Assembly: GCF_024808255.1 (NCBI RefSeq)
Contig: NZ_JANTYS010000008.1
Span: 186,001 to 250,000, forward strand
Length of the DNA: 64,000 nt
Origin: Mucilaginibacter dorajii
GTDB taxonomy: Bacteria; Bacteroidota; Bacteroidia; Sphingobacteriales; Sphingobacteriaceae
Reading direction: 5' to 3'
Position numbers and translations under genes: made by a program. The notes beneath the pieces were generated by a model that did no database searches, was not told the DNA's origin, and saw only the letters and a list, made by a program, of their open reading frames with translations. This document shows positions 36,294 through 44,180 of this stretch, piece after piece (the stretch's first letter is position 1; every line of letters starts with the position of its first letter).

Positions 36294-36519
36294 ATATACC
36301 CGCTCACAAATGGCCTTACGTAACGGACAGGATAAGCCCCAGATTTGGGTGGCCTACAAAGGTGATATATATGATGTTACCGAAAGCCGGCTATGGCGCA
36401 ACGGCAAACACTACGAACACTGGGCCGGCCAGGACCTAACCCCCGAACTTATCGACGCCCCGCATACCGAAACTGTTTTTGAAAAGTTTGAGAAGGTGGG
36501 AAGGTTAAGCCCCCTCTAA
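36277..36519 (+). CDS. Cytochrome b5-like heme-binding protein
   Basis: 80 residues, a compact cytochrome b5-like domain: IWVAYKGDIYDVTESRLW, then GKHYEHWAGQDLT with a candidate heme-ligand His, and DAPHTETVFEKF with the second. There is no signal or membrane anchor, so it should be cytoplasmic. The start at 36277 lies inside the end of the cyclase gene. The last three codons and stop come from the repeat that begins at 36507. Its place in the crt operon suggests an electron donor to a carotenoid-modifying enzyme such as CrtZ (inference). Confidence 0.83.
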   Translation: MDNLPEYTRSQMALRNGQDKPQIWVAYKGDIYDVTESRLWRNGKHYEHWAGQDLTPELIDAPHTETVFEKFEKVGRLSPL

Positions 36520-36606
36520 ATCTCCCCCGGTAGGGGGGACTTAAAAGATATTTAATTGGACAGTTTTTAAAGCCCTCCCTTCCGGGGAGGGTTTGGGTGG
36601 GGCTTG
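36507..36606. repeat. GCCCCCTCTAAATCTCCCCC...GGGTTTGGGTGGGGC element, second copy
   Basis: A 100-base relative of 15283-15376 with the same order: AGCCCCCTCTAAATC, a CTCCCCC/GGGGGG hairpin, an AT-rich middle, a CCCTCCC/GGGGAGGG hairpin and GGGTTTGGGTGGGGCTT. It overlaps the end of the cytochrome b5-like gene and stops 4 bases before the PfkB stop codon, between convergent genes. Confidence 0.87.
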
Positions 36607-36610
36607 CTCC

Positions 36611-37525
36611 TTATATCTCAAACTTAGCCAACCCCACAAACTCTTGGATCCTACCCGCTATTTCTTCTTGTGTTAGATTTCTCAGTCTTTCTGATCCGAA
36701 TTTTTCAACGCAGAAGGATGCCAGGGCAGAGCCATAGATGATTGCGTTTTTCATGCTATCAAAGCTCACTGTGCCGGTTTTAGCCATATAGCCAATAAAA
36801 CCACCTGCGAAGGTATCGCCGGCTCCGGTAGGGTCAAAAACTTCTTCAAGCGGCAGGGCAGGTGCGCTGAAGATCTTATCTTCATGGAAAAGCAATGCAC
36901 CATGTTCTCCTTTTTTAATAATGAGGTACTTTGGTCCCATGGTTAAAATTTTGCGGGCAGCCTTTACCAAACTAAACTCGCCAGATAGTTGACGTGCTTC
37001 GGCATCGTTGATGGTTAAAACATCAATCATAGTTAAGGTTTTAAGCAATTCATCCAGTGCTATGTCCATCCAAAAATTCATGGTATCCATTACGATAAGT
37101 TTTGGGCGGTTTTTAAGGCGGCTGATCACACTTTGCTGTACCTGGGGCGATAAGTTGCCCAGCATTAGAAATTCGCAGTCCTGGTATGAATCGGGGATGA
37201 TGGGGTCAAAATCTGCCAAAACATTCAGCTCGGTAACCAGCGTATCGCGGCTATTCATATCGTTATGGTACTTTCCGCTCCAGAAAAAGGATTTTTCGCC
37301 TTGTTTTATCTGCAAACCTTCGGTATCTACGTTGTGCTTGTTCAGGTCTTCAATCTCGCTTTGAGGGAAGTCGTCGCCTACTACGGCAACAATATTTATA
37401 TCATCAAAAAAGTAGGATGCACCCAGGCTTGCGAAGGTGGCCGACCCTCCAACAATTTTATCTGTTTTCCCAAAGGGGGTTTCAATTGCGTCAAATGCTA
37501 CAGTACCAATAACTAACAAACTCAT
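36611..37525 (-). CDS. PfkB family sugar/nucleoside kinase
   Basis: About 304 residues from the ATG at 37525 (MSLLVIGTVAFDAIET); the longer frame adds ten unlikely residues. The ribokinase-fold signature DPTGAGDTFAGGFIGY carries the catalytic Asp and the anion hole, and the N-terminal GGSATFASLGASYF matches the family's sugar-binding loop. Phosphoryl transfer from ATP to a sugar or nucleoside is certain in type, but the substrate is not known. Related Bacteroidota proteins are often annotated as sugar or adenosine kinases. Lone gene, convergent with the crt operon. Confidence 0.88.
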   Translation of the reverse strand: MSLLVIGTVAFDAIETPFGKTDKIVGGSATFASLGASYFFDDINIVAVVGDDFPQSEIEDLNKHNVDTEGLQIKQGEKSFFWSGKYHNDMNSRDTLVTELNVLADFDPIIPDSYQDCEFLMLGNLSPQVQQSVISRLKNRPKLIVMDTMNFWMDIALDELLKTLTMIDVLTINDAEARQLSGEFSLVKAARKILTMGPKYLIIKKGEHGALLFHEDKIFSAPALPLEEVFDPTGAGDTFAGGFIGYMAKTGTVSFDSMKNAIIYGSALASFCVEKFGSERLRNLTQEEIAGRIQEFVGLAKFEI

Positions 37526-37768
37526 GTAAAAGTATTTATATTTTATTATCGGCAAATATTGCGAAAATCAATGAATATTGAACAATAGAGTGCGGTGGTT
37601 TTGGTATGAATGTACTTAGGCTGGTAATAAATGCCAAATTTTTTTACCCAATAAAGTAGCAAAAGAGCTTGAATGAAAAAAAACAGGCGATCTATAGAAA
37701 TTTAAGTATCACATTATCAATAGTTAACAAGGGATTTGAAAAATATTTGATTTTTTTTGATAGAAAAA

Positions 37769-37800
37769 TTGTGAGTTTTCCTCAGAAATACTACTTTTGC
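37769..37800 (+). promoter_or_regulatory. Promoter of the tRNA-Asn gene
   Basis: TTG at 37769-37771 and TACTTTTG at 37793-37800 are separated by 21 bases, a good -33/-7 pair. The predicted transcript starts about 15 bases before the mature tRNA. Confidence 0.65.
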
Positions 37801-37821
37801 AGACTCCAAAACGGAAACGAT

Positions 37822-37898
37822 TCCTGAGTAGCTCAGCTGGTTAGAGCATCTGACTGTTAATCAGAGGGTCGCTGGTTCGAGCCCAGCCTCAGGAGCCA
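37822..37898 (+). tRNA. tRNA-Asn (anticodon GTT)
   Basis: Full cloverleaf of 77 bases with CCA encoded. The acceptor arms TCCTGAG/CTCAGGA pair fully, the D arm is GCTC...GAGC, the anticodon stem TCTGA/TCAGA surrounds the loop CTGTTAA with anticodon GTT, and the T arm is GCTGG-TTCGAGC-CCAGC. A degenerate copy of its T-arm is found at 42740-42754, suggesting use as an integration site. Confidence 0.97.
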
Positions 37899-38057
37899 TA
37901 GGCCTTAGCATGCCCGCTAAGGCCTATTTTTATTTTAATAGAAATTTCGGTCTTCGTTTTAAATCAAATAGAGGCACATTTTGGGTTCGAACTCATTCTC
38001 CCACGGACACTGGGTAAAGTTTTCAATTTCATTTTCTAGCTTGTCTAACTCGTTGTT

Positions 38058-38297
38058 TTATAGTTGTTTGTTTTGGTTTTTAAGCTTGATATATGGTTCG
38101 AGCTTTTCGGATTCGCCCGATGTCCCGTTTTGGGAGGAAATAAAGTTTTGTTTAACCACTTGCTTAGCCAAAAAGTACAATAGATTAAGATATCTTTCAG
38201 CATCCGATTTAGATAATTCAACACCTCTTTTCTTAAAGTGAGTAATTATTTGCGAGGTGCTAATAGATCGTTTTAAGTCTTCGTGTATAGTTTTCAT
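38058..38297 (-). CDS. Small hypothetical protein in the tRNA-linked segment
   Basis: 79 residues, charged and helical, with a Ser/Gly/Gln-rich tail. The core ITHFKKRGVELSKSDAERYLNLLYFLAKQVVKQ resembles short helical proteins I associate with Bacteroidota mobile segments, but I cannot name a family. It is divergent from the primase-helicase gene, with 78 bases between the starts. It could be a regulator or antitoxin-like component; nothing in sequence proves it. The sequence 37899-38057 between it and the tRNA contains no recognisable gene. Confidence 0.5.
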   Translation of the reverse strand: MKTIHEDLKRSISTSQIITHFKKRGVELSKSDAERYLNLLYFLAKQVVKQNFISSQNGTSGESEKLEPYIKLKNQNKQL

Positions 38298-38375
38298 GAT
38301 TTATAAATTATAGTTTGTAAACACTAAAATAAACTGATATTTGAATAGCTTGATGTAATGAGTTCAGAGTGGTAA

Positions 38376-41360
38376 ATGAAAGATGATCGACTAAACTTAT
38401 ATAAATCCCTATTCAAAGGCAGAGAAGATGTGTTTGCTTTAAGGTGGGAGAAAGGTGGCAAAAGCAGCTATATGCCCGGTTATAGTTTCGATCCCAACCG
38501 ATATCGGCTCCACCAAATGAAAGGCGGTACTTTTCAAACGTTTACTGATAAAACTTACCAGACGCTAACCGACGACCATTTAATCAAACATCTCAAAGGC
38601 GAACAGGTTGTTGGATTGTACCCATTGCTGCAGGACAATACCTCCTGGTTTATCGCGGCTGATTTTGATGAAGCTGATTGGGTTGAAGAATGCAGGACAT
38701 TTATAAAGGCTTGTGAGGAGTATGACATTCCAACCTATTTAGAAAGGTCTCGTTCGGGTAAAGGGGGGCACGTGTGGATATTTTTTGAAGAGCCCTTTGA
38801 AGCGTTCAGAAGCAGAAAAATAATGATGTCCCTGCTACAGAAGGCAGGTTTAATTTCGGTGTTCGATAAAAACTCAAGTTTCGACCGGCTTTTTCCTAAT
38901 CAGGATTATCATTCAAAAAAAGGTTTGGGCAACCTCATTGCTTTGCCTTTAAATAAAACCAGTTTAAATAACGGGAATAGCTGTTTTATCGACCCTGAAT
39001 CGTTACAGCCTTTTGATGATCAGTGGGCATTTCTAAAAACAATCAACAGGATCACCATAAACCAACTAAATCACATTTACAAAGAGCAAACTAATCAGGA
39101 CGAACTTTCCACAGGTTTATTTCAAAAAGAACAGCCCATAGCTGGTAAGTTGACGATTATATTAAATAACGCAATTTATATTAGCCGTGCAGGTTTGCCT
39201 GCTTCTCTTATTGCTTTTCTGAAAGATGAACTAAATTTTGCCAACAATGAATACCAGGTAAAAAAGAATATCAATAAAAATGCATTCGGCATAAAACGTT
39301 ACTTTAAGCTACTGAACGAAACATCAGAATCTATTTCTGTTCCCCGTGGTTTTATTGGCAAGCTATTGCGTTTTTGTAAAGAACAACAAATAGAATATAC
39401 CCTCGAGGATCAAAGAAAGAAAATAGAACCGGTCAGGTTTAAAGGCGCTATTACTTTAAGGGAATATCAAATACCAGCACAGAAAGCTGCTACTAAAAAA
39501 GATTTTGGAATTATTGTTGCTCCGCCTGGTTCGGGCAAAACGGTTTTGAGTTTGGCTATTATAAAAGATAAACAACAACCGGCGCTCATTTTAGTTCATC
39601 GTAAGCAGTTGGCAGATCAGTGGATGGAACGCATTGAATCCTTCCTGGGCATTTCGAAGAAAGAGATTGGACGTATTGGTCAAGGAAAGAACAAACCAGG
39701 CAAGCACATTACTGTCGCTATGATCCAAAGTATGGAAAAGGCGTTGGGCTCATCAGAATTCACCAAACTAATGAACGCTTTTGGTACCATCATCATTGAC
39801 GAATGCCATCACATACCGGCAGAAACCTATCAGCGGGTTGTCGGGAAGCTGAATAGTTACTATATGTATGGGCTTACGGCTACACCATTTAGGAAGTACA
39901 ATGATGGCAAATTGATATTTATTCATTTAGGTGAGATCATCCATGAAGTTAAAGCGCCGGAGGTGAAAAATCAATCAGGTACGCAGATCATCGTCAGAGA
40001 AACAGATTTATTTGTCCCCTTTAATATCAAAACAGACAAATTCGAAACGCTCTTTAAGATTTTAATACACGATTCGGCACGGAATCAACTTATTTTAAAT
40101 GATGTGGTCTCACGGCTAAATACTGGTAAGAAAGCCGTTATTATTACAGAGCGGAAAGAGCATATTACTTCTATTCAACAATATTTAAAGCAGCATTATG
40201 ATACCATTGCATTAAGTGGCGAAGATTCTGACTTAAATAAAAAATCCAAATGGGCTGCCATAAACAAAGGAGACTTTCAGGCACTGATTACAACAGGCCA
40301 ATATTTTGGCGAAGGAACCGACATTCAAAATATAGAATGCTTGTTTTTAGTTTACCCATTCGCTTTTGAAGGTAAGCTGATTCAATATATCGGCAGGGTA
40401 CAACGATCTGAAATATCACCCGTTATCTATGATTATCGCGACCACAGGATCAGCTACCTGGAAAGACTTTTTCAAAAAAGAAACCTCTACTATAAAAAGC
40501 TCGATCAAAGTGGCTTAACAATCCCTGTAGATGATAGCGAAATAGTTAGCGGTCAAATCAACGAAAAAATTGAGGTGTCAATCGAACAATTGGAGTTCAG
40601 ATTTGGCAGCATTGCTTTTAAGCATAATATTACCGATTTTAGTGGAAAAGAGGTGGAGTTTGAAATCGAAAACCTAAATATCAGGCCAGAATTTACGGTA
40701 CTTAAACCGTACTTTATCCGATTTCTAAAAAGCACAACGGTATTGATTAATATCCGGGCAACATTTCAACATAACAGGTTTGTGTTTAAATCTGCGTCCT
40801 CCAATGACCTTGATAAAATAAACCGCGAGGTTATTGAAAGTGTAAAGTTTCGTTTTTTGAATAAAGAAATCATTAAACGCGTTCCATCAGGTGAAGAAAA
40901 TTTATTGGACGCCGGGCAACTACAAAGTGGCAGCGAACAATTGATTTATGCGAATGAAGAAGACTTATTGGAAAATATCTTAGCGCTTAAACAATATAAG
41001 CACCATCGTCATCTCCGTTACCTTTCCCAAAAACATGAACGAAGCGTATTGAAACTTCGTTTTGTGTTGGAACCTTTCTCATTTGTTTTTCTACTTGCCG
41101 GTATCAATCAATATCATTTGGTTTGGGAAACATTAGATACTGAGGAAGCGACCTATATATGGCACCTCGGGAAATCAATTTATGAACTTGAACAAAGTGT
41201 AAAGAAGATAGATAGATTGCTTGGACAAATAAGAATAAAAGGGCGGCAACAATATCTTGAAACTAACCCCGAACAATTTAGCCGTATTGTACATGATTAT
41301 TCCGACGACACTAAAGGTTTGATTGTTTGGAAAGATCTTTTGGAGGAACGGCTATTTTAA
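38376..41360 (+). CDS. TOTE-type archaeo-eukaryotic primase fused to a superfamily 2 helicase
   Basis: 994 residues. Residues about 1-230 are a primase-like domain with the catalytic Asp96-x-Asp98 in FIAADFDEADW and the later SxH-like motif SRSGKGGHVWIFF (His132), as in primases of TOTE conflict systems. A linker follows to about 350. The helicase core has Walker A APPGSGKT (382-389), DECHH (475-479), TATP (501-504), and motif VI near YIGRVQRSE. About 270 further residues end the chain, with no recognised domain. It probably primes or remodels invading or damaged DNA; a defence role is inferred from the family and the neighbouring nuclease. Confidence 0.87.
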   Translation: MKDDRLNLYKSLFKGREDVFALRWEKGGKSSYMPGYSFDPNRYRLHQMKGGTFQTFTDKTYQTLTDDHLIKHLKGEQVVGLYPLLQDNTSWFIAADFDEADWVEECRTFIKACEEYDIPTYLERSRSGKGGHVWIFFEEPFEAFRSRKIMMSLLQKAGLISVFDKNSSFDRLFPNQDYHSKKGLGNLIALPLNKTSLNNGNSCFIDPESLQPFDDQWAFLKTINRITINQLNHIYKEQTNQDELSTGLFQKEQPIAGKLTIILNNAIYISRAGLPASLIAFLKDELNFANNEYQVKKNINKNAFGIKRYFKLLNETSESISVPRGFIGKLLRFCKEQQIEYTLEDQRKKIEPVRFKGAITLREYQIPAQKAATKKDFGIIVAPPGSGKTVLSLAIIKDKQQPALILVHRKQLADQWMERIESFLGISKKEIGRIGQGKNKPGKHITVAMIQSMEKALGSSEFTKLMNAFGTIIIDECHHIPAETYQRVVGKLNSYYMYGLTATPFRKYNDGKLIFIHLGEIIHEVKAPEVKNQSGTQIIVRETDLFVPFNIKTDKFETLFKILIHDSARNQLILNDVVSRLNTGKKAVIITERKEHITSIQQYLKQHYDTIALSGEDSDLNKKSKWAAINKGDFQALITTGQYFGEGTDIQNIECLFLVYPFAFEGKLIQYIGRVQRSEISPVIYDYRDHRISYLERLFQKRNLYYKKLDQSGLTIPVDDSEIVSGQINEKIEVSIEQLEFRFGSIAFKHNITDFSGKEVEFEIENLNIRPEFTVLKPYFIRFLKSTTVLINIRATFQHNRFVFKSASSNDLDKINREVIESVKFRFLNKEIIKRVPSGEENLLDAGQLQSGSEQLIYANEEDLLENILALKQYKHHRHLRYLSQKHERSVLKLRFVLEPFSFVFLLAGINQYHLVWETLDTEEATYIWHLGKSIYELEQSVKKIDRLLGQIRIKGRQQYLETNPEQFSRIVHDYSDDTKGLIVWKDLLEERLF

Positions 41361-41444
41361 GTTGATTATCGTAATCTTCTACTTCTAATTTGGTGTCTTG
41401 CTTATCATTCTTTAAGTTTATCACTAAATCATTTCTGGGTTACT

Positions 41445-42518
41445 ATGGATATTAAAGATTATCAATCTTTGTTAACAGACATAAAGGCAAGAATTCGCAA
41501 GGCGCAAACTAAGGCGGCTCTTGCGGTAAATGCCGAAATGATTATGCTTTATTGGGATATCGGTAAAACTGTAAAGCAACTTCAAAGCGAACAAGGCTGG
41601 GGAGCTACGGTTGTCGCACGGTTAGCCAATGATATTAAAAATGAACTGCCGGAGGTAAAGGGTTTTTCTGAACGAAATCTTTTATTTATGGTTCAATTTT
41701 ATAAGGAATATGATACCGAAGATCTAATTGTGAAACGGCCTGTTTCACAATTAGAAAATTCTAATCACGCTAAGATTGAATTTATGAAACAAGTCGTTTC
41801 ACAAATTCCTTGGGGGCATAATATTTTGCTAATCCAAAAAGTTAAGGAAAAAAACATACGTCTTTGGTATGCGCAACAAACGCTTTTAAATGGCTGGAGT
41901 AGAGATGTTCTTTCATTAATGATAAAGAGTGATCTTCATTTTCGACAGGGAGAAGCAATTAATAATTTTTCAAAAACCTTGCCCAGTCCACAATCTGATT
42001 TGGTAAAGGAAACGCTAAAAGACCCATACATATTTGACTTTATTACAATTGCCCAGCCTTTTACAGAACGCGAGTTGGAAACTGAACTGGTAAAACATGT
42101 AGAAAAGTTTCTATTAGAATTAGGTGCCGGCTTCGCTTTTGTTGGACGGCAGTATAAATTGGTTGTTGGCGACCAGGATTTCTATTTAGACCTCTTATTC
42201 TATCATCTTAAAATGAGATGTTTTGTTGTCGTTGACTTAAAAAGAGGCGACTTTAAGCCCGAATATGCGGGCAAAATGAATTTCTATTGTTCTGCAGTGG
42301 ATGACCTAATAAAACATCCGACTGATAAACCTACCATTGGTCTTATTCTTTGCCAAACAAAAAATAAGATTATGGCAGAATATGCTTTAAGGGACATGAA
42401 TAAACCCATTGGAATTTCGGAATTTGAATTAACCAGATCATTGCCGAAAAACCTGCGGTCAAGTTTACCAACTATTGAAGAAATAGAAAATGAATTAAAA
42501 AATGATGGTGACTTATGA
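41445..42518 (+). CDS. DUF1016/YhcG PD-(D/E)XK nuclease
   Basis: 357 residues. The N-terminal DUF1016 helical/winged domain includes MLYWDIGKTVKQLQ and the signature GWGATVVARLANDIKNELPEVKGFSERNL. The C-terminal nuclease has Asp249 in FYLDLLFYH and Asp264-Leu-Lys266 in VVVDLKRGDF, the catalytic layout of PD-(D/E)XK enzymes. Full length. It lies 84 bases downstream of the primase-helicase on the same strand and may form a two-gene unit with it. Members are common in restriction and defence neighbourhoods; here no restriction methylase is nearby. Confidence 0.92.
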   Translation: MDIKDYQSLLTDIKARIRKAQTKAALAVNAEMIMLYWDIGKTVKQLQSEQGWGATVVARLANDIKNELPEVKGFSERNLLFMVQFYKEYDTEDLIVKRPVSQLENSNHAKIEFMKQVVSQIPWGHNILLIQKVKEKNIRLWYAQQTLLNGWSRDVLSLMIKSDLHFRQGEAINNFSKTLPSPQSDLVKETLKDPYIFDFITIAQPFTERELETELVKHVEKFLLELGAGFAFVGRQYKLVVGDQDFYLDLLFYHLKMRCFVVVDLKRGDFKPEYAGKMNFYCSAVDDLIKHPTDKPTIGLILCQTKNKIMAEYALRDMNKPIGISEFELTRSLPKNLRSSLPTIEEIENELKNDGDL

Positions 42519-42658
42519 GCTAAATTCATCCATTACAATTTTGCCAATAATTTACTTCAAAAAGCAATAAATCATAGACGGCTCTCGCCAAAATTTCCAA
42601 TTCTTTTTAATTTTTCGATGAATTGGTTCGAAAAAACGCCACTGTGGGGAGCAAAATG

Positions 42659-42696
42659 GGGCAAGCACGTTTTATGGTCGCTTGCCCTTCTTTTTT
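42659..42696 (+). terminator. Terminator after the primase/nuclease segment
   Basis: GGGCAAGC/GCTTGCCC stem with a 13-base loop, followed by TTCTTTTTT. It is 140 bases after the nuclease stop and suggests the end of that transcript. Confidence 0.7.
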
Positions 42697-42739
42697 ATCA
42701 TATAATTCGCTATTAACTAAGTAAATATAAGTGTACAAA

Positions 42740-42754
42740 TCGCTGGTTTGAGCC
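42740..42754. other. Candidate attachment-site remnant matching the tRNA-Asn T-arm
   Basis: TCGCTGGTTTGAGCC matches 14 of 15 bases of the tRNA-Asn sequence 37869-37883 (TCGCTGGTTCGAGCC) in the same orientation. Together the two copies bracket the small hypothetical gene, the primase-helicase and the DUF1016 nuclease, about 4.87 kb. No integrase gene is present between them. The 410-base gap 42519-42929 holds this site, the terminator and two copies of TGGGGAGCA (42645 and 42786), but no convincing gene. Confidence 0.5.
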
Positions 42755-42929
42755 GTTTGATGTTGCATTTCTTCAAAGTGAATTTTGGGGAGCATTTTGA
42801 TTTGAGCCTGGTAGGGACGGCAAGTGGTACTTCCTAAAGGGCCCGAACGTATAAAAATACGGAACAGCAGCCATTGAGTAGTTAATTTATATAATTGGTT
42901 AACTCTAATTGAATTTCTTTACCCATAAT

Positions 42930-44180
42930 TTACATTTTCATTCCTGCCATATTATTGCCGCCATTTTTAAATATGGCCTCACTATTTAAAAGGTAAGCCC
43001 CGTTGGTAACCACAATATCTCCCATATTTAAACCGGAAATAACAGGTACGTAACTCTGATTACCACTGCCGGGTTTGATTATTCTTGATGAATAACTGCC
43101 ATCTGTATTTTTGACCCATACCCGGCTGCCCTTGCCATCAGTTAAAATGGCGGAAACAGGTACTGCTAATACATGGTTGCTACTACCCGCGATTGAAATA
43201 TATGCCAACATACCCGGCCGGATCAAACCTTGTGGGTTTGGTATGCTGATCCTCACCAAATTAATTTTAGAGGCATTCGATAATTCGGGATTGATAAATT
43301 CAACTTTACCTTTGATAACCAGTTCGCCCAGGTCTGGGAAGGACACGCTTACCGGATCACTTTCTTTATAGCTGTTCACTTCACTGGCATAAAGTTGAGC
43401 TTCTACCCAAAGACTGTTGAGTGCATGTGTTTTTAATATAGACATCCCTTCAGTTACATAATCACCTTCATGCACCGCAATCTCACTAACGGTTCCGCCA
43501 ACTTTGCTCAGCATCGTTGTGGTTGCAGATACCTTTCCGGAATTTGCGATGTCCTTGATCTGTGCGGACGAGAGACCCCATAGCTGTAGTTTGTTTTCGG
43601 CAGCACTGATGAGTTGCGGGTAGTCTACATCAGGGCTGTGCAGCACTTTCTGCTGCTGTTTGGCCAGTAAATATTCTTTTTCCGCCTCCTGCAGGTCTTC
43701 ACTATAAATGGAATAAACAGGCTGCCCAATGATTATTTTTTCCCCGGTTGTTCTGATAAATAATTCCTGTATCCGGCCCGCTAACCGTGCGCTCAGTTCT
43801 TGAGCTTTGTTTTCGTCTGTCGTTACTGTTCCAGTCAGTGTCTTTTCATTACCGGTATTTTCTTCTCTTAATGTGTCGGTTTGTATGCCGGCCAGCTGAA
43901 CCTGCGTAGCGGTTAGCCTGATCTTATTTGCGGACATATCCATCCTATTTCCGGTCATTTCCACTTTGATCAGTTTCATCCCACAGATAGGGCAGTTACC
44001 CGGATGATCTTCGTGGATCTGAGGGTGCATAGAACAGGTATAATATGCTTGGTTTGTTGCCTTGGCAATGGTAATTTTTGGTTTTTGGGTGCAAGCCGTA
44101 AAAAGTACAGCCGTCAATATTATAAAAGATAAGAGCCCTGCTGCGCTCAATACCACAAAATGGTTCTTTCTGTTATTCAT
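42930..44180 (-). CDS. RND efflux periplasmic adaptor (CusB-like) with metal-binding domain, second
   Basis: 416-residue membrane-fusion protein that links an inner-membrane RND pump to an outer-membrane channel. A lipoprotein-like start (FTACTQ) is followed by a heavy-metal-binding domain (YYTCSMHPQI...CPICGMKL), then an alpha-hairpin, lipoyl and beta-barrel parts of the CusB type. The end has a Met/His-containing tail (NNMAGMKM) that could bind Cu(I) or Ag(I). It overlaps the previous adaptor gene by 8 bases. Copper or silver export is the likely role, from family and the whole locus. Confidence 0.9.
   Translation of the reverse strand: MNNRKNHFVVLSAAGLLSFIILTAVLFTACTQKPKITIAKATNQAYYTCSMHPQIHEDHPGNCPICGMKLIKVEMTGNRMDMSANKIRLTATQVQLAGIQTDTLREENTGNEKTLTGTVTTDENKAQELSARLAGRIQELFIRTTGEKIIIGQPVYSIYSEDLQEAEKEYLLAKQQQKVLHSPDVDYPQLISAAENKLQLWGLSSAQIKDIANSGKVSATTTMLSKVGGTVSEIAVHEGDYVTEGMSILKTHALNSLWVEAQLYASEVNSYKESDPVSVSFPDLGELVIKGKVEFINPELSNASKINLVRISIPNPQGLIRPGMLAYISIAGSSNHVLAVPVSAILTDGKGSRVWVKNTDGSYSSRIIKPGSGNQSYVPVISGLNMGDIVVTNGAYLLNSEAIFKNGGNNMAGMKM

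What the first reader, a model, noticed from the sequence alone, without database searches (positions are those of the whole stretch)
38058..42518. Minimal TOTE-type primase-helicase plus DUF1016 nuclease pair as a possible defence system
A primase-like domain with intact DxD and His motifs is fused to an intact SF2 helicase and followed by a full-length PD-(D/E)XK nuclease of a defence-associated family. This pair lacks the methylase, peptidase or other partners seen in larger systems, and about 270 residues at the C-terminus of the fusion match nothing I recognise. A divergent 79-residue protein could be its regulator. This is the best candidate for an undescribed system here.
Basis: partly seen in the sequence, partly recalled or inferred. 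Interest (0 to 1): 0.8.

Follow-up and report, generated by a model that had tools for sequence, protein, structure and literature searches.

The report
Primase-helicase with swappable toxin-like neighbours
A gene joining a primer-making enzyme to a DNA helicase, inserted beside a tRNA gene in a Bacteroidota bacterium, belongs to a widespread family whose next-door gene is often one of several unrelated toxin-like or nuclease types; it may be an anti-invader unit, but no activity has been tested.

Summary
The gene observation holds. Window 38376-41360 encodes a 994-aa fusion (AEP primase, XPB-like SF2 helicase, ~280-aa C-terminal domain without Pfam match); 41445-42518 encodes a full-length DUF1016/YhcG nuclease 84 bp downstream on the same strand. 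The 79-aa "regulator" is not supported. The interpretation needs changing. (1) Not a TOTE system (TPR, OB, TBP, Effector): TBP is absent from 28 of 28 carrier genomes searched. (2) The nuclease is not an obligate partner: 7 of 81 related loci have a DUF1016 match nearby, and 29 of 29 nuclease relatives examined (of 58 found) lack the fusion within 1.5 kb. (3) The fusion is a constant core with a changing neighbour: SLFN_AlbA_2, Fic, DUF1016 or AbiEii in 19 of 85 adjacent proteins against at most 4 of 113 four to five genes away; with HipA, 29 of 31 adjacent ones are co-oriented. Yet 40 of 66 loci have none of the five adjacent. (4) It sits at a tRNA-Asn hotspot; a 4.8-kb block recurs in one relative. 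Best reading: a mobile, probably anti-invader core with exchangeable toxin-like or nuclease modules. No activity was tested.

The parts
37822..37898 (+). tRNA-Asn(GTT), the insertion hotspot next to which the unit lies
   Evidence: ARAGORN, Rfam; tRNA-Asn found beside PfkB in 28 of 30 same-genus loci (own included), with differing genes beyond it
37857..42650 (.). block of about 4.8 kb shared with L052 (89.3% identity over 4798 aligned columns); its left end lies inside the tRNA-Asn, in the anticodon region
38376..41360 (+). primase-helicase fusion, 994 aa (the constant core)
38388..39074 (+). AEP primase domain (PF22548), aa 5-233; D96/D98 and H132 intact
39450..40409 (+). SF2 (XPB/RadD-like) helicase, aa 359-678
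40509..41357 (+). C-terminal domain, aa 712-994; no Pfam family; also found in shorter proteins without primase-helicase in other genomes
41445..42518 (+). DUF1016/YhcG PD-(D/E)XK nuclease, 357 aa; exchangeable neighbour of the core
42740..42754 (+). 15-nt repeat (one mismatch) of the tRNA T arm beyond the nuclease; possible but unproven relic of a second attachment site; outside the block shared with L052
38058..38297 (-). 79-aa ORF proposed as regulator; not supported as a conserved gene

Best explanation
A small, horizontally moved unit with a constant core and a swappable neighbour. The core is one protein: an AEP primase-polymerase, an SF2 helicase/translocase and a conserved C-terminal domain. 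Most likely (inferred) it engages the DNA of invaders such as phages or plasmids, the helicase opening or tracking along it and the primase making products on it, and so blocks or marks the invader. The neighbour, here the DUF1016 nuclease and elsewhere AbiE, SLFN_AlbA_2, Fic, HipA, RelA/SpoT-like, SIR2-like or restriction genes, is most likely (inferred) a toxin-like effector or guard that acts with the core or when the core is defeated. Shown: domain make-up, intact motifs, conservation, signs of mobility, repeated neighbour exchange, co-orientation. Not shown: any activity, any phage phenotype, any contact between core and neighbour.
For: All 81 loci fetched with the C-terminal-domain profile match the fusion, 79 of them beyond the C-terminal domain. 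Motif positions are intact in 71 of 71 full-length rows. Neighbours: SLFN_AlbA_2 6, Fic 5, DUF1016_N 4, AbiEii 4 of 85 adjacent proteins in 51 dereplicated loci, window not included; none of the four is among the families with 2 or more members in 113 proteins four to five genes away, so at most 4 of 113; Fisher P 6.5e-5 even then. With HipA added, 31 adjacent hits in 30 of 89 loci, window included, against a permutation mean of 12.1 and maximum of 22 in 5000. 29 of 31 lie on the core's strand against 74 of 124 other adjacent genes (P 2e-4); 23 are upstream, gaps -55 to 829 nt. The two AbiE loci whose second gene was scanned, L074 and L119, carry the AbiEi antitoxin too, so whole toxin-antitoxin modules stand there. 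Sisters on the tree carry different neighbours: L104 Fic and DUF1016 / L105 HipA, L109 HipA / L132 AbiEii, L126 Bro-N / L117 SLFN_AlbA_2. Neighbour labels change 14 times over 30 labelled tips, shuffled mean 16.5. Mobility: tRNA-Asn hotspot, block shared with L052. No phage or plasmid record of the two collections covers 80% of the fusion.
Against: Short cargo islands of unrelated passengers would by themselves put toxin-like genes at rank 1; adjacency and co-orientation are not function. The families were chosen after seeing the neighbours, and the seeds came largely from adjacent genes (searches are the less biased test). Of 66 loci with both flanks known, 40 have none of the five families adjacent. 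23 of 300 label shuffles gave 14 changes or fewer, so some inheritance of the neighbour is not excluded. DUF1016 alone reaches 5 adjacent hits with 99 of 5000 permutations as high, and HipA is not enriched (1607 of 5000). In this window the four flanking genes scanned are ordinary, not a defence island, and the only other copy of the same block has a broken nuclease (L052).
Confidence: 0.45

Rival explanations
1. Passenger clustering: the primase-helicase, the nuclease and the toxin-like genes elsewhere are independent cargo that gathers at insertion sites; adjacency has no functional meaning, and toxin-antitoxin neighbours at most stabilise the island.
For: The unit sits at a hotspot where same-genus loci carry mostly different genes; 29 of 29 nuclease loci examined lack the fusion within 1.5 kb; 40 of 66 loci have none of the five families adjacent; small islands alone would enrich cargo at rank 1.
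Against: 29 of 31 adjacent toxin-like genes are co-oriented with the core against 74 of 124 other adjacent genes, 23 of them upstream, most with short gaps.
Confidence: 0.3
2. The fusion is a replication, repair or maintenance protein of an integrative element, the primase-helicase priming the element's own DNA.
For: AEP-helicase proteins of mobile elements include replication proteins (PMC5862659, passages); tyrosine recombinases occur in a cluster seen in 15 loci (two members confirmed by Pfam; Phage_integrase in 4 of 85 adjacent proteins).
Against: The window's block has no other ORF over 86 aa, so no recombinase or relaxase gene of its own; no phage or plasmid record covers 80% of the protein. 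No origin was looked for.
Confidence: 0.12
3. As first read: a fixed primase-helicase plus DUF1016 nuclease system, with the 79-aa protein as regulator.
For: Same-strand neighbours 84 bp apart; same arrangement in L052; DUF1016 directly upstream on the same strand in L097 and L104.
Against: DUF1016 match near only 7 of 81 related loci; 0 of 29 nuclease loci examined with the fusion; 79-aa ORF not conserved.
Confidence: 0.05
4. A true TOTE conflict system that has lost parts.
For: AEP-TOTE domain, 279.8 bits against a cut-off of 27.
Against: TBP absent from 28 of 28 carrier genomes, control positive in 4 of 14 control genomes, all archaea; no TPR, OB or cold-shock family in the four flanking proteins of the window scanned.
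Confidence: 0.02

Closest known systems
Non-CRISPR CAPP_A-like primase-polymerase with helicase domain (PMC8211822, passages)
   Same: related AEP (PDB 7nqd/7nqf, E 1.9e-14) followed by a helicase; the paper calls a CAPP_A type 3-like, helicase-bearing form the most prevalent non-CRISPR architecture, typically in mobile elements
   Different: carries the extra C-terminal domain; no CRISPR gene among the four flanking proteins scanned; the passages I saw do not mention exchangeable toxin-like neighbours
TOTE conflict systems (TPR, OB, TBP, Effector; PMC12458937, passage)
   Same: the primase-domain family PF22548
   Different: TBP absent from 28 of 28 genomes; no TPR or OB family in the flanking genes scanned
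XPB/RAD25, RadD and type IV methyl-directed restriction SF2 helicases
   Same: SF2 helicase core
   Different: fused here to an AEP primase; that those proteins lack such a primase is recalled, not tested
DUF1016 / YhcG, PADLOC PDC-S02
   Same: the nuclease is a full-length ordinary member (E 3.5e-149)
   Different: no distinguishing feature found; it is the neighbour, not the core
ABC-3C systems
   Same: one shorter protein with the same C-terminal domain (L040) lies near a gene with the ABC-3C CTD6 domain (above cut-off) and Mrr_cat and AAA_23 matches (below cut-off)
   Different: single case; neighbours of the other free-standing copies scanned are unrelated

Membership tests
TOTE conflict system | AEP primase domain of PF22548 | tested here: met
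   279.8 bits against cut-off 27
TOTE conflict system | TATA-binding protein component | tested here: not met
   PF00352 in 0 of 28 carrier genomes; positive in 4 of 14 controls, all archaea
TOTE conflict system | TPR / OB (cold-shock) component next to it | tested here: not met
   window only: none of the four flanking proteins scanned. In other loci 1 of 85 adjacent proteins has a TPR_12 match, no OB or cold-shock family among the 25 of 110 families shown
CRISPR-associated primase-polymerase (CAPP) | AEP related to solved CAPP structures | tested here: met
   7nqd E 1.9e-14, DxD and H regions aligned
CRISPR-associated primase-polymerase (CAPP) | reaches NCBIfam cut-off NF040561 and lies with CRISPR-Cas genes | tested here: not met
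   99.3 bits against 200; no Cas family in the flanking genes scanned. Of the 30 upstream neighbours of other loci scanned one is Cas9, in L055
DUF1016/YhcG nuclease | both Pfam domains full length above cut-off | tested here: met
   D249 and K266 conserved in 14 rows, window included (catalytic role recalled)
Anti-phage defence system | protection against phage | not testable with these tools
   needs a phage challenge
ABC-3C system | ABC ATPase, middle component and CTD effector | tested here: not met
   no such family in the window proteins scanned; the shared C-terminal domain lies near one CTD6 gene, in L040 only
OB fold for the first half of the C-terminal domain | clear structural match | tested here: inconclusive
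   many SSB and other OB chains, but Z only 2 to 4.1; no Foldseek match at E 0.001

The most novel reading that the evidence does not exclude
A so far unnamed, Bacteroidota-wide modular immune unit: one primase-helicase core with a new C-terminal domain, paired with interchangeable toxin or nuclease modules that act as its effectors, or as guards that fire when an invader disables the core.
Probability: 0.3. Interest if true: 0.75.

Novelty: new variant of a known kind. Interest (0 to 1): 0.5.

Why it matters
If true, it would add a primase-helicase core to defence cores that carry exchangeable toxin-like companions, and would offer a natural series (the same core with AbiE, Fic, SLFN_AlbA_2 or DUF1016) in which the guard-versus-effector question can be tested directly. 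The conserved C-terminal domain, which also exists without the primase-helicase, is a defined unknown worth a structure. Even if only the passenger reading holds, it warns against filing these genes as TOTE systems on the domain name alone.

Tried and rejected
TOTE system: rejected on TBP. Obligate pair with the nuclease: rejected. 79-aa regulator: rejected. RNA element: Rfam at gathering threshold finds only the tRNA in 36500-44000. Phage or plasmid replication gene: 0 of 107 plasmid and 0 of 1057 phage records with a match cover 80% of the fusion; the 40 phage rows listed do not reach the primase domain, T5 D10 among them. Fold of the C-terminal domain: a model of the whole fusion from 7 sequences was poor (pLDDT 56.5) and was not searched; the domain alone from 56 sequences (pLDDT 83.1) gave no Foldseek match at E 0.001 in PDB or viral models. 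Top PDB rows are sliding clamps at TM about 0.1, which I do not trust; VIA Z values of at most 4.2 leave the fold open. A profile search of PDB sequences gave only designed 48-residue proteins at E 0.16 or worse; the nuclease has no PDB sequence match at E 0.1.

Split genes: in L037, L129, L082 and L103 the fusion is in two ORFs. L037 and L129 break near the same place after the primase domain, but the sequence looks like plain frameshifts, so I dropped the idea of a programmed one. Broken cores (at least L054, L061, L065, L067, L068, L082, L087, L103, L129 of 81) fit a non-essential accessory gene; assembly errors are not excluded. Free-standing C-terminal-domain proteins: neighbours scanned include Hsp90, exonuclease VII, an Lhr-like helicase and an ORC-CDC6-like protein, with no common context.

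Literature: 'TOTE conflict system' 0 papers; TOTE + primase + conflict system 0; AEP-TOTE, PF22548 and two further terms 0. Broader searches (one search listed 12 of 83 papers) listed none that I recognised as describing this arrangement, judged from titles and abstract starts. The library holds open-licence papers only. Seen: passages of PMC12458937, PMC8211822, PMC5862659 and PMC11341870. The 2022 review that names TOTE was not seen.

Rows dropped and limits: the best 80 of 309 genome matches were returned, and many loci are cut by contig ends. sought DUF1016 by blastp with this nuclease at E 1e-3, so remote members may be missed. Adjacent gene means the nearest ORF of 100 aa or more. A4/A5 used 51 of 81 loci (one per 85% identity group) and left out proteins over 800 aa. 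The tree used 71 rows with ORFs of 900 aa or more and is a quick tree. The 89 loci hold some duplicates (L032 and L125 are identical); the dereplicated set of 56 gives 21 of 23 co-oriented against 42 of 76. The reverse test saw 29 of 58 non-own nuclease matches and 1.5-kb flanks only. The ORF filter kept the antisense ORF over the 79-aa ORF; one search repeated that test on DNA. HipA, integrase and AbiEi names were first my reading of cluster sequences and were checked for single members.

Full report
What is there. The window encodes a 994-aa fusion at 38376-41360 and a 357-aa protein at 41445-42518 on the same strand. The fusion has an AEP-TOTE primase domain (aa 5-233), an SF2 helicase (ResIII 359-506, Helicase_C 576-678) and a C-terminal stretch without a Pfam match; the second protein is a full-length DUF1016_N plus YhcG_C nuclease. 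PADLOC matches the nuclease to candidate family PDC-S02 and the primase to CRISPR-associated PrimPol models. The nearest solved relatives by sequence are XPB/RAD25 helicases and the CAPP primase-polymerases 7nqd/7nqf. The motif positions listed under the observation check are identical in 71 of 71 full-length rows, window included.

Where it sits. A tRNA-Asn lies at 37822-37898. The flanking genes scanned are a PfkB kinase, a lycopene-cyclase-like and a cytochrome-b5-like protein upstream and a HlyD-type efflux protein downstream, so there is no sign of a larger defence island. Of 61 same-genus genomes, 56 have the PfkB gene. Of the 30 loci returned, own included, 28 have the tRNA-Asn beside it, and in the 0.5 to 1.4 kb read beyond the tRNA only three gene clusters are shared, each by two or three loci; I read them as integrase-, excisionase- and ParA-like, which no family search checked. 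In L052, a Mucilaginibacter contig, a block of 4798 aligned columns at 89.3% identity matches window 37857-42650. It starts in the anticodon region of the tRNA and carries a decayed tRNA 3' half; the fusion is intact there, the nuclease is in three ORFs. A 15-nt repeat of the tRNA T arm at 42740 (0.01 matches expected, but the pattern was chosen after seeing it) could be a relic of a second end, yet lies outside the shared block. Fusion, 79-aa stretch and nuclease have thus probably moved together once. tRNAs within 1.5 kb occur in 6 of 88 related loci, so tRNA sites are not the rule.

How widespread. 29 of 395 phylum genomes match the fusion, most without the C-terminal domain. A profile of that domain found 309 related places in a collection of 84,980 species genomes, of which the best 80 were returned, and one of 2.9 million viral contigs. 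By record title nearly all are Bacteroidota; exceptions are one Verrucomicrobia, one Balneolia and one Chloroherpetonaceae MAG. All 81 loci match the fusion, 79 beyond the C-terminal domain; L065 and L069 match only there. At least nine are broken, as expected for an accessory gene.

Is the nuclease its partner? Of 81 loci, 7 have a DUF1016 match nearby: L052, L053 (a fragment), L056 (fragments), L057, L059, L097, L104. The full-length ones, L057, L059, L097 and L104, are 28-29% identical to this nuclease. Conversely, 52 of 395 class genomes have a relative of the nuclease at E 1e-60, 59 matches in all; 29 of 29 non-own loci returned have no fusion within 1.5 kb. G099 of the same genus has it at 81% identity (with one stop inside) and no match to the fusion. 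Six phylum relatives of the fusion with the C-terminal domain (L032-L037, two of them in split ORFs) have no DUF1016 match in the stretches read. So the pair is not obligate, yet the adjacency has arisen more than once.

What stands beside the core instead. Upstream neighbours scanned include AbiEii, SLFN_AlbA_2, Fic, RelA_SpoT, SIR2_2, an M78 peptidase, BsuBI/PstI and Eco57I restriction genes, NA37, PP2C, UvrD, Bro-N, Cas9 and an IS66 transposase; some have no Pfam match. In 51 dereplicated loci, SLFN_AlbA_2, Fic, DUF1016_N and AbiEii account for 6, 5, 4 and 4 of 85 adjacent proteins. Among 113 proteins four or five genes away none of the four reaches two members, hence at most 4; P is 6.5e-5 even at 4. 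Counting five families over 89 loci, 31 adjacent hits lie in 30 loci against a permutation mean of 12.1, with the caveat that seeds came largely from adjacent genes; singly, Fic (0 of 5000 permutations as high), SLFN_AlbA_2 (6), AbiEii (48) and DUF1016 (99) are enriched, HipA (1607) is not. Co-orientation is 29 of 31 against 74 of 124 other adjacent genes. L074 and L119 carry the AbiEi antitoxin beside AbiEii, i.e. whole toxin-antitoxin modules. On a quick tree, sisters often differ in neighbour, and neighbour labels change nearly as often as shuffled ones (14 against a mean of 16.5; 23 of 300 shuffles at or below 14). Against this reading: 40 of 66 loci with both flanks known have none of the five families adjacent, and short cargo islands would give some of the enrichment on their own.

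The C-terminal domain. It models well alone (pLDDT 83.1, pTM 0.63) but matches no solved or viral structure at Foldseek E 0.001. Many VIA rows for its first half are OB-fold DNA-binding proteins at Z 2 to 4.1, a hint only. It also occurs in shorter proteins without the primase-helicase (about 300-460 aa) in 12 genomes, one copy broken, with varied neighbours, once near an ABC-3C CTD6 gene.

Is it TOTE? TOTE stands for TPR, OB, TBP, Effector (PMC12458937, passage). TBP is absent from 28 of 28 carrier genomes while the control rings in four archaea of 14 control genomes. It is therefore not a TOTE system, though its primase belongs to the family named after it. The nearest described kind is the non-CRISPR primase-polymerase plus helicase of PMC8211822 (passages); the C-terminal domain and the exchangeable neighbours are additions to what those passages say.

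How it probably works. From the make-up I infer that the core acts on DNA, opening or tracking along it and making primers or copies on it, and that its target is invading DNA; the neighbour would be an effector or a guard. The rival that all these are independent passengers is not excluded (0.3). No activity was measured.

Noticed in passing
L235 (Acinetobacter baumannii plasmid NZ_CP038501.1) 4129-7268: A shorter relative of the fusion (34.9% identity over query 3-709, no C-terminal domain match) lies directly behind genes annotated as HigB toxin and transcriptional regulator, so a toxin-like neighbour also occurs outside Bacteroidota. The E. coli and Paracoccus stretches read show none.
   Followed up: no
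window 37822-37898 and L175-L204: tRNA-Asn beside PfkB looks like an insertion hotspot in the genus: the 28 loci read carry mostly different genes behind it.
   Followed up: partly
L040:8779-10041: A shorter protein with the fusion's C-terminal domain lies near a gene with the ABC-3C CTD6 domain.
   Followed up: partly
L156-L166: Shorter proteins with the C-terminal domain but no primase-helicase in several genomes, mostly beside ordinary genes; two of them and the one in L040 were scanned and have no Pfam family.
   Followed up: partly
L121:10467-11970: A second, decayed copy in which the primase part is followed directly by the C-terminal domain, the helicase part being absent.
   Followed up: partly
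L041:7474-10335: A related primase-helicase with a different C-terminus, weakly phospholipase-D-like (PLDc_2, E 0.004, below cut-off).
   Followed up: no
L055:2935-7521: A Cas9 gene lies directly upstream of the fusion in Mucilaginibacter pineti, 335 bp away on the same strand.
   Followed up: no
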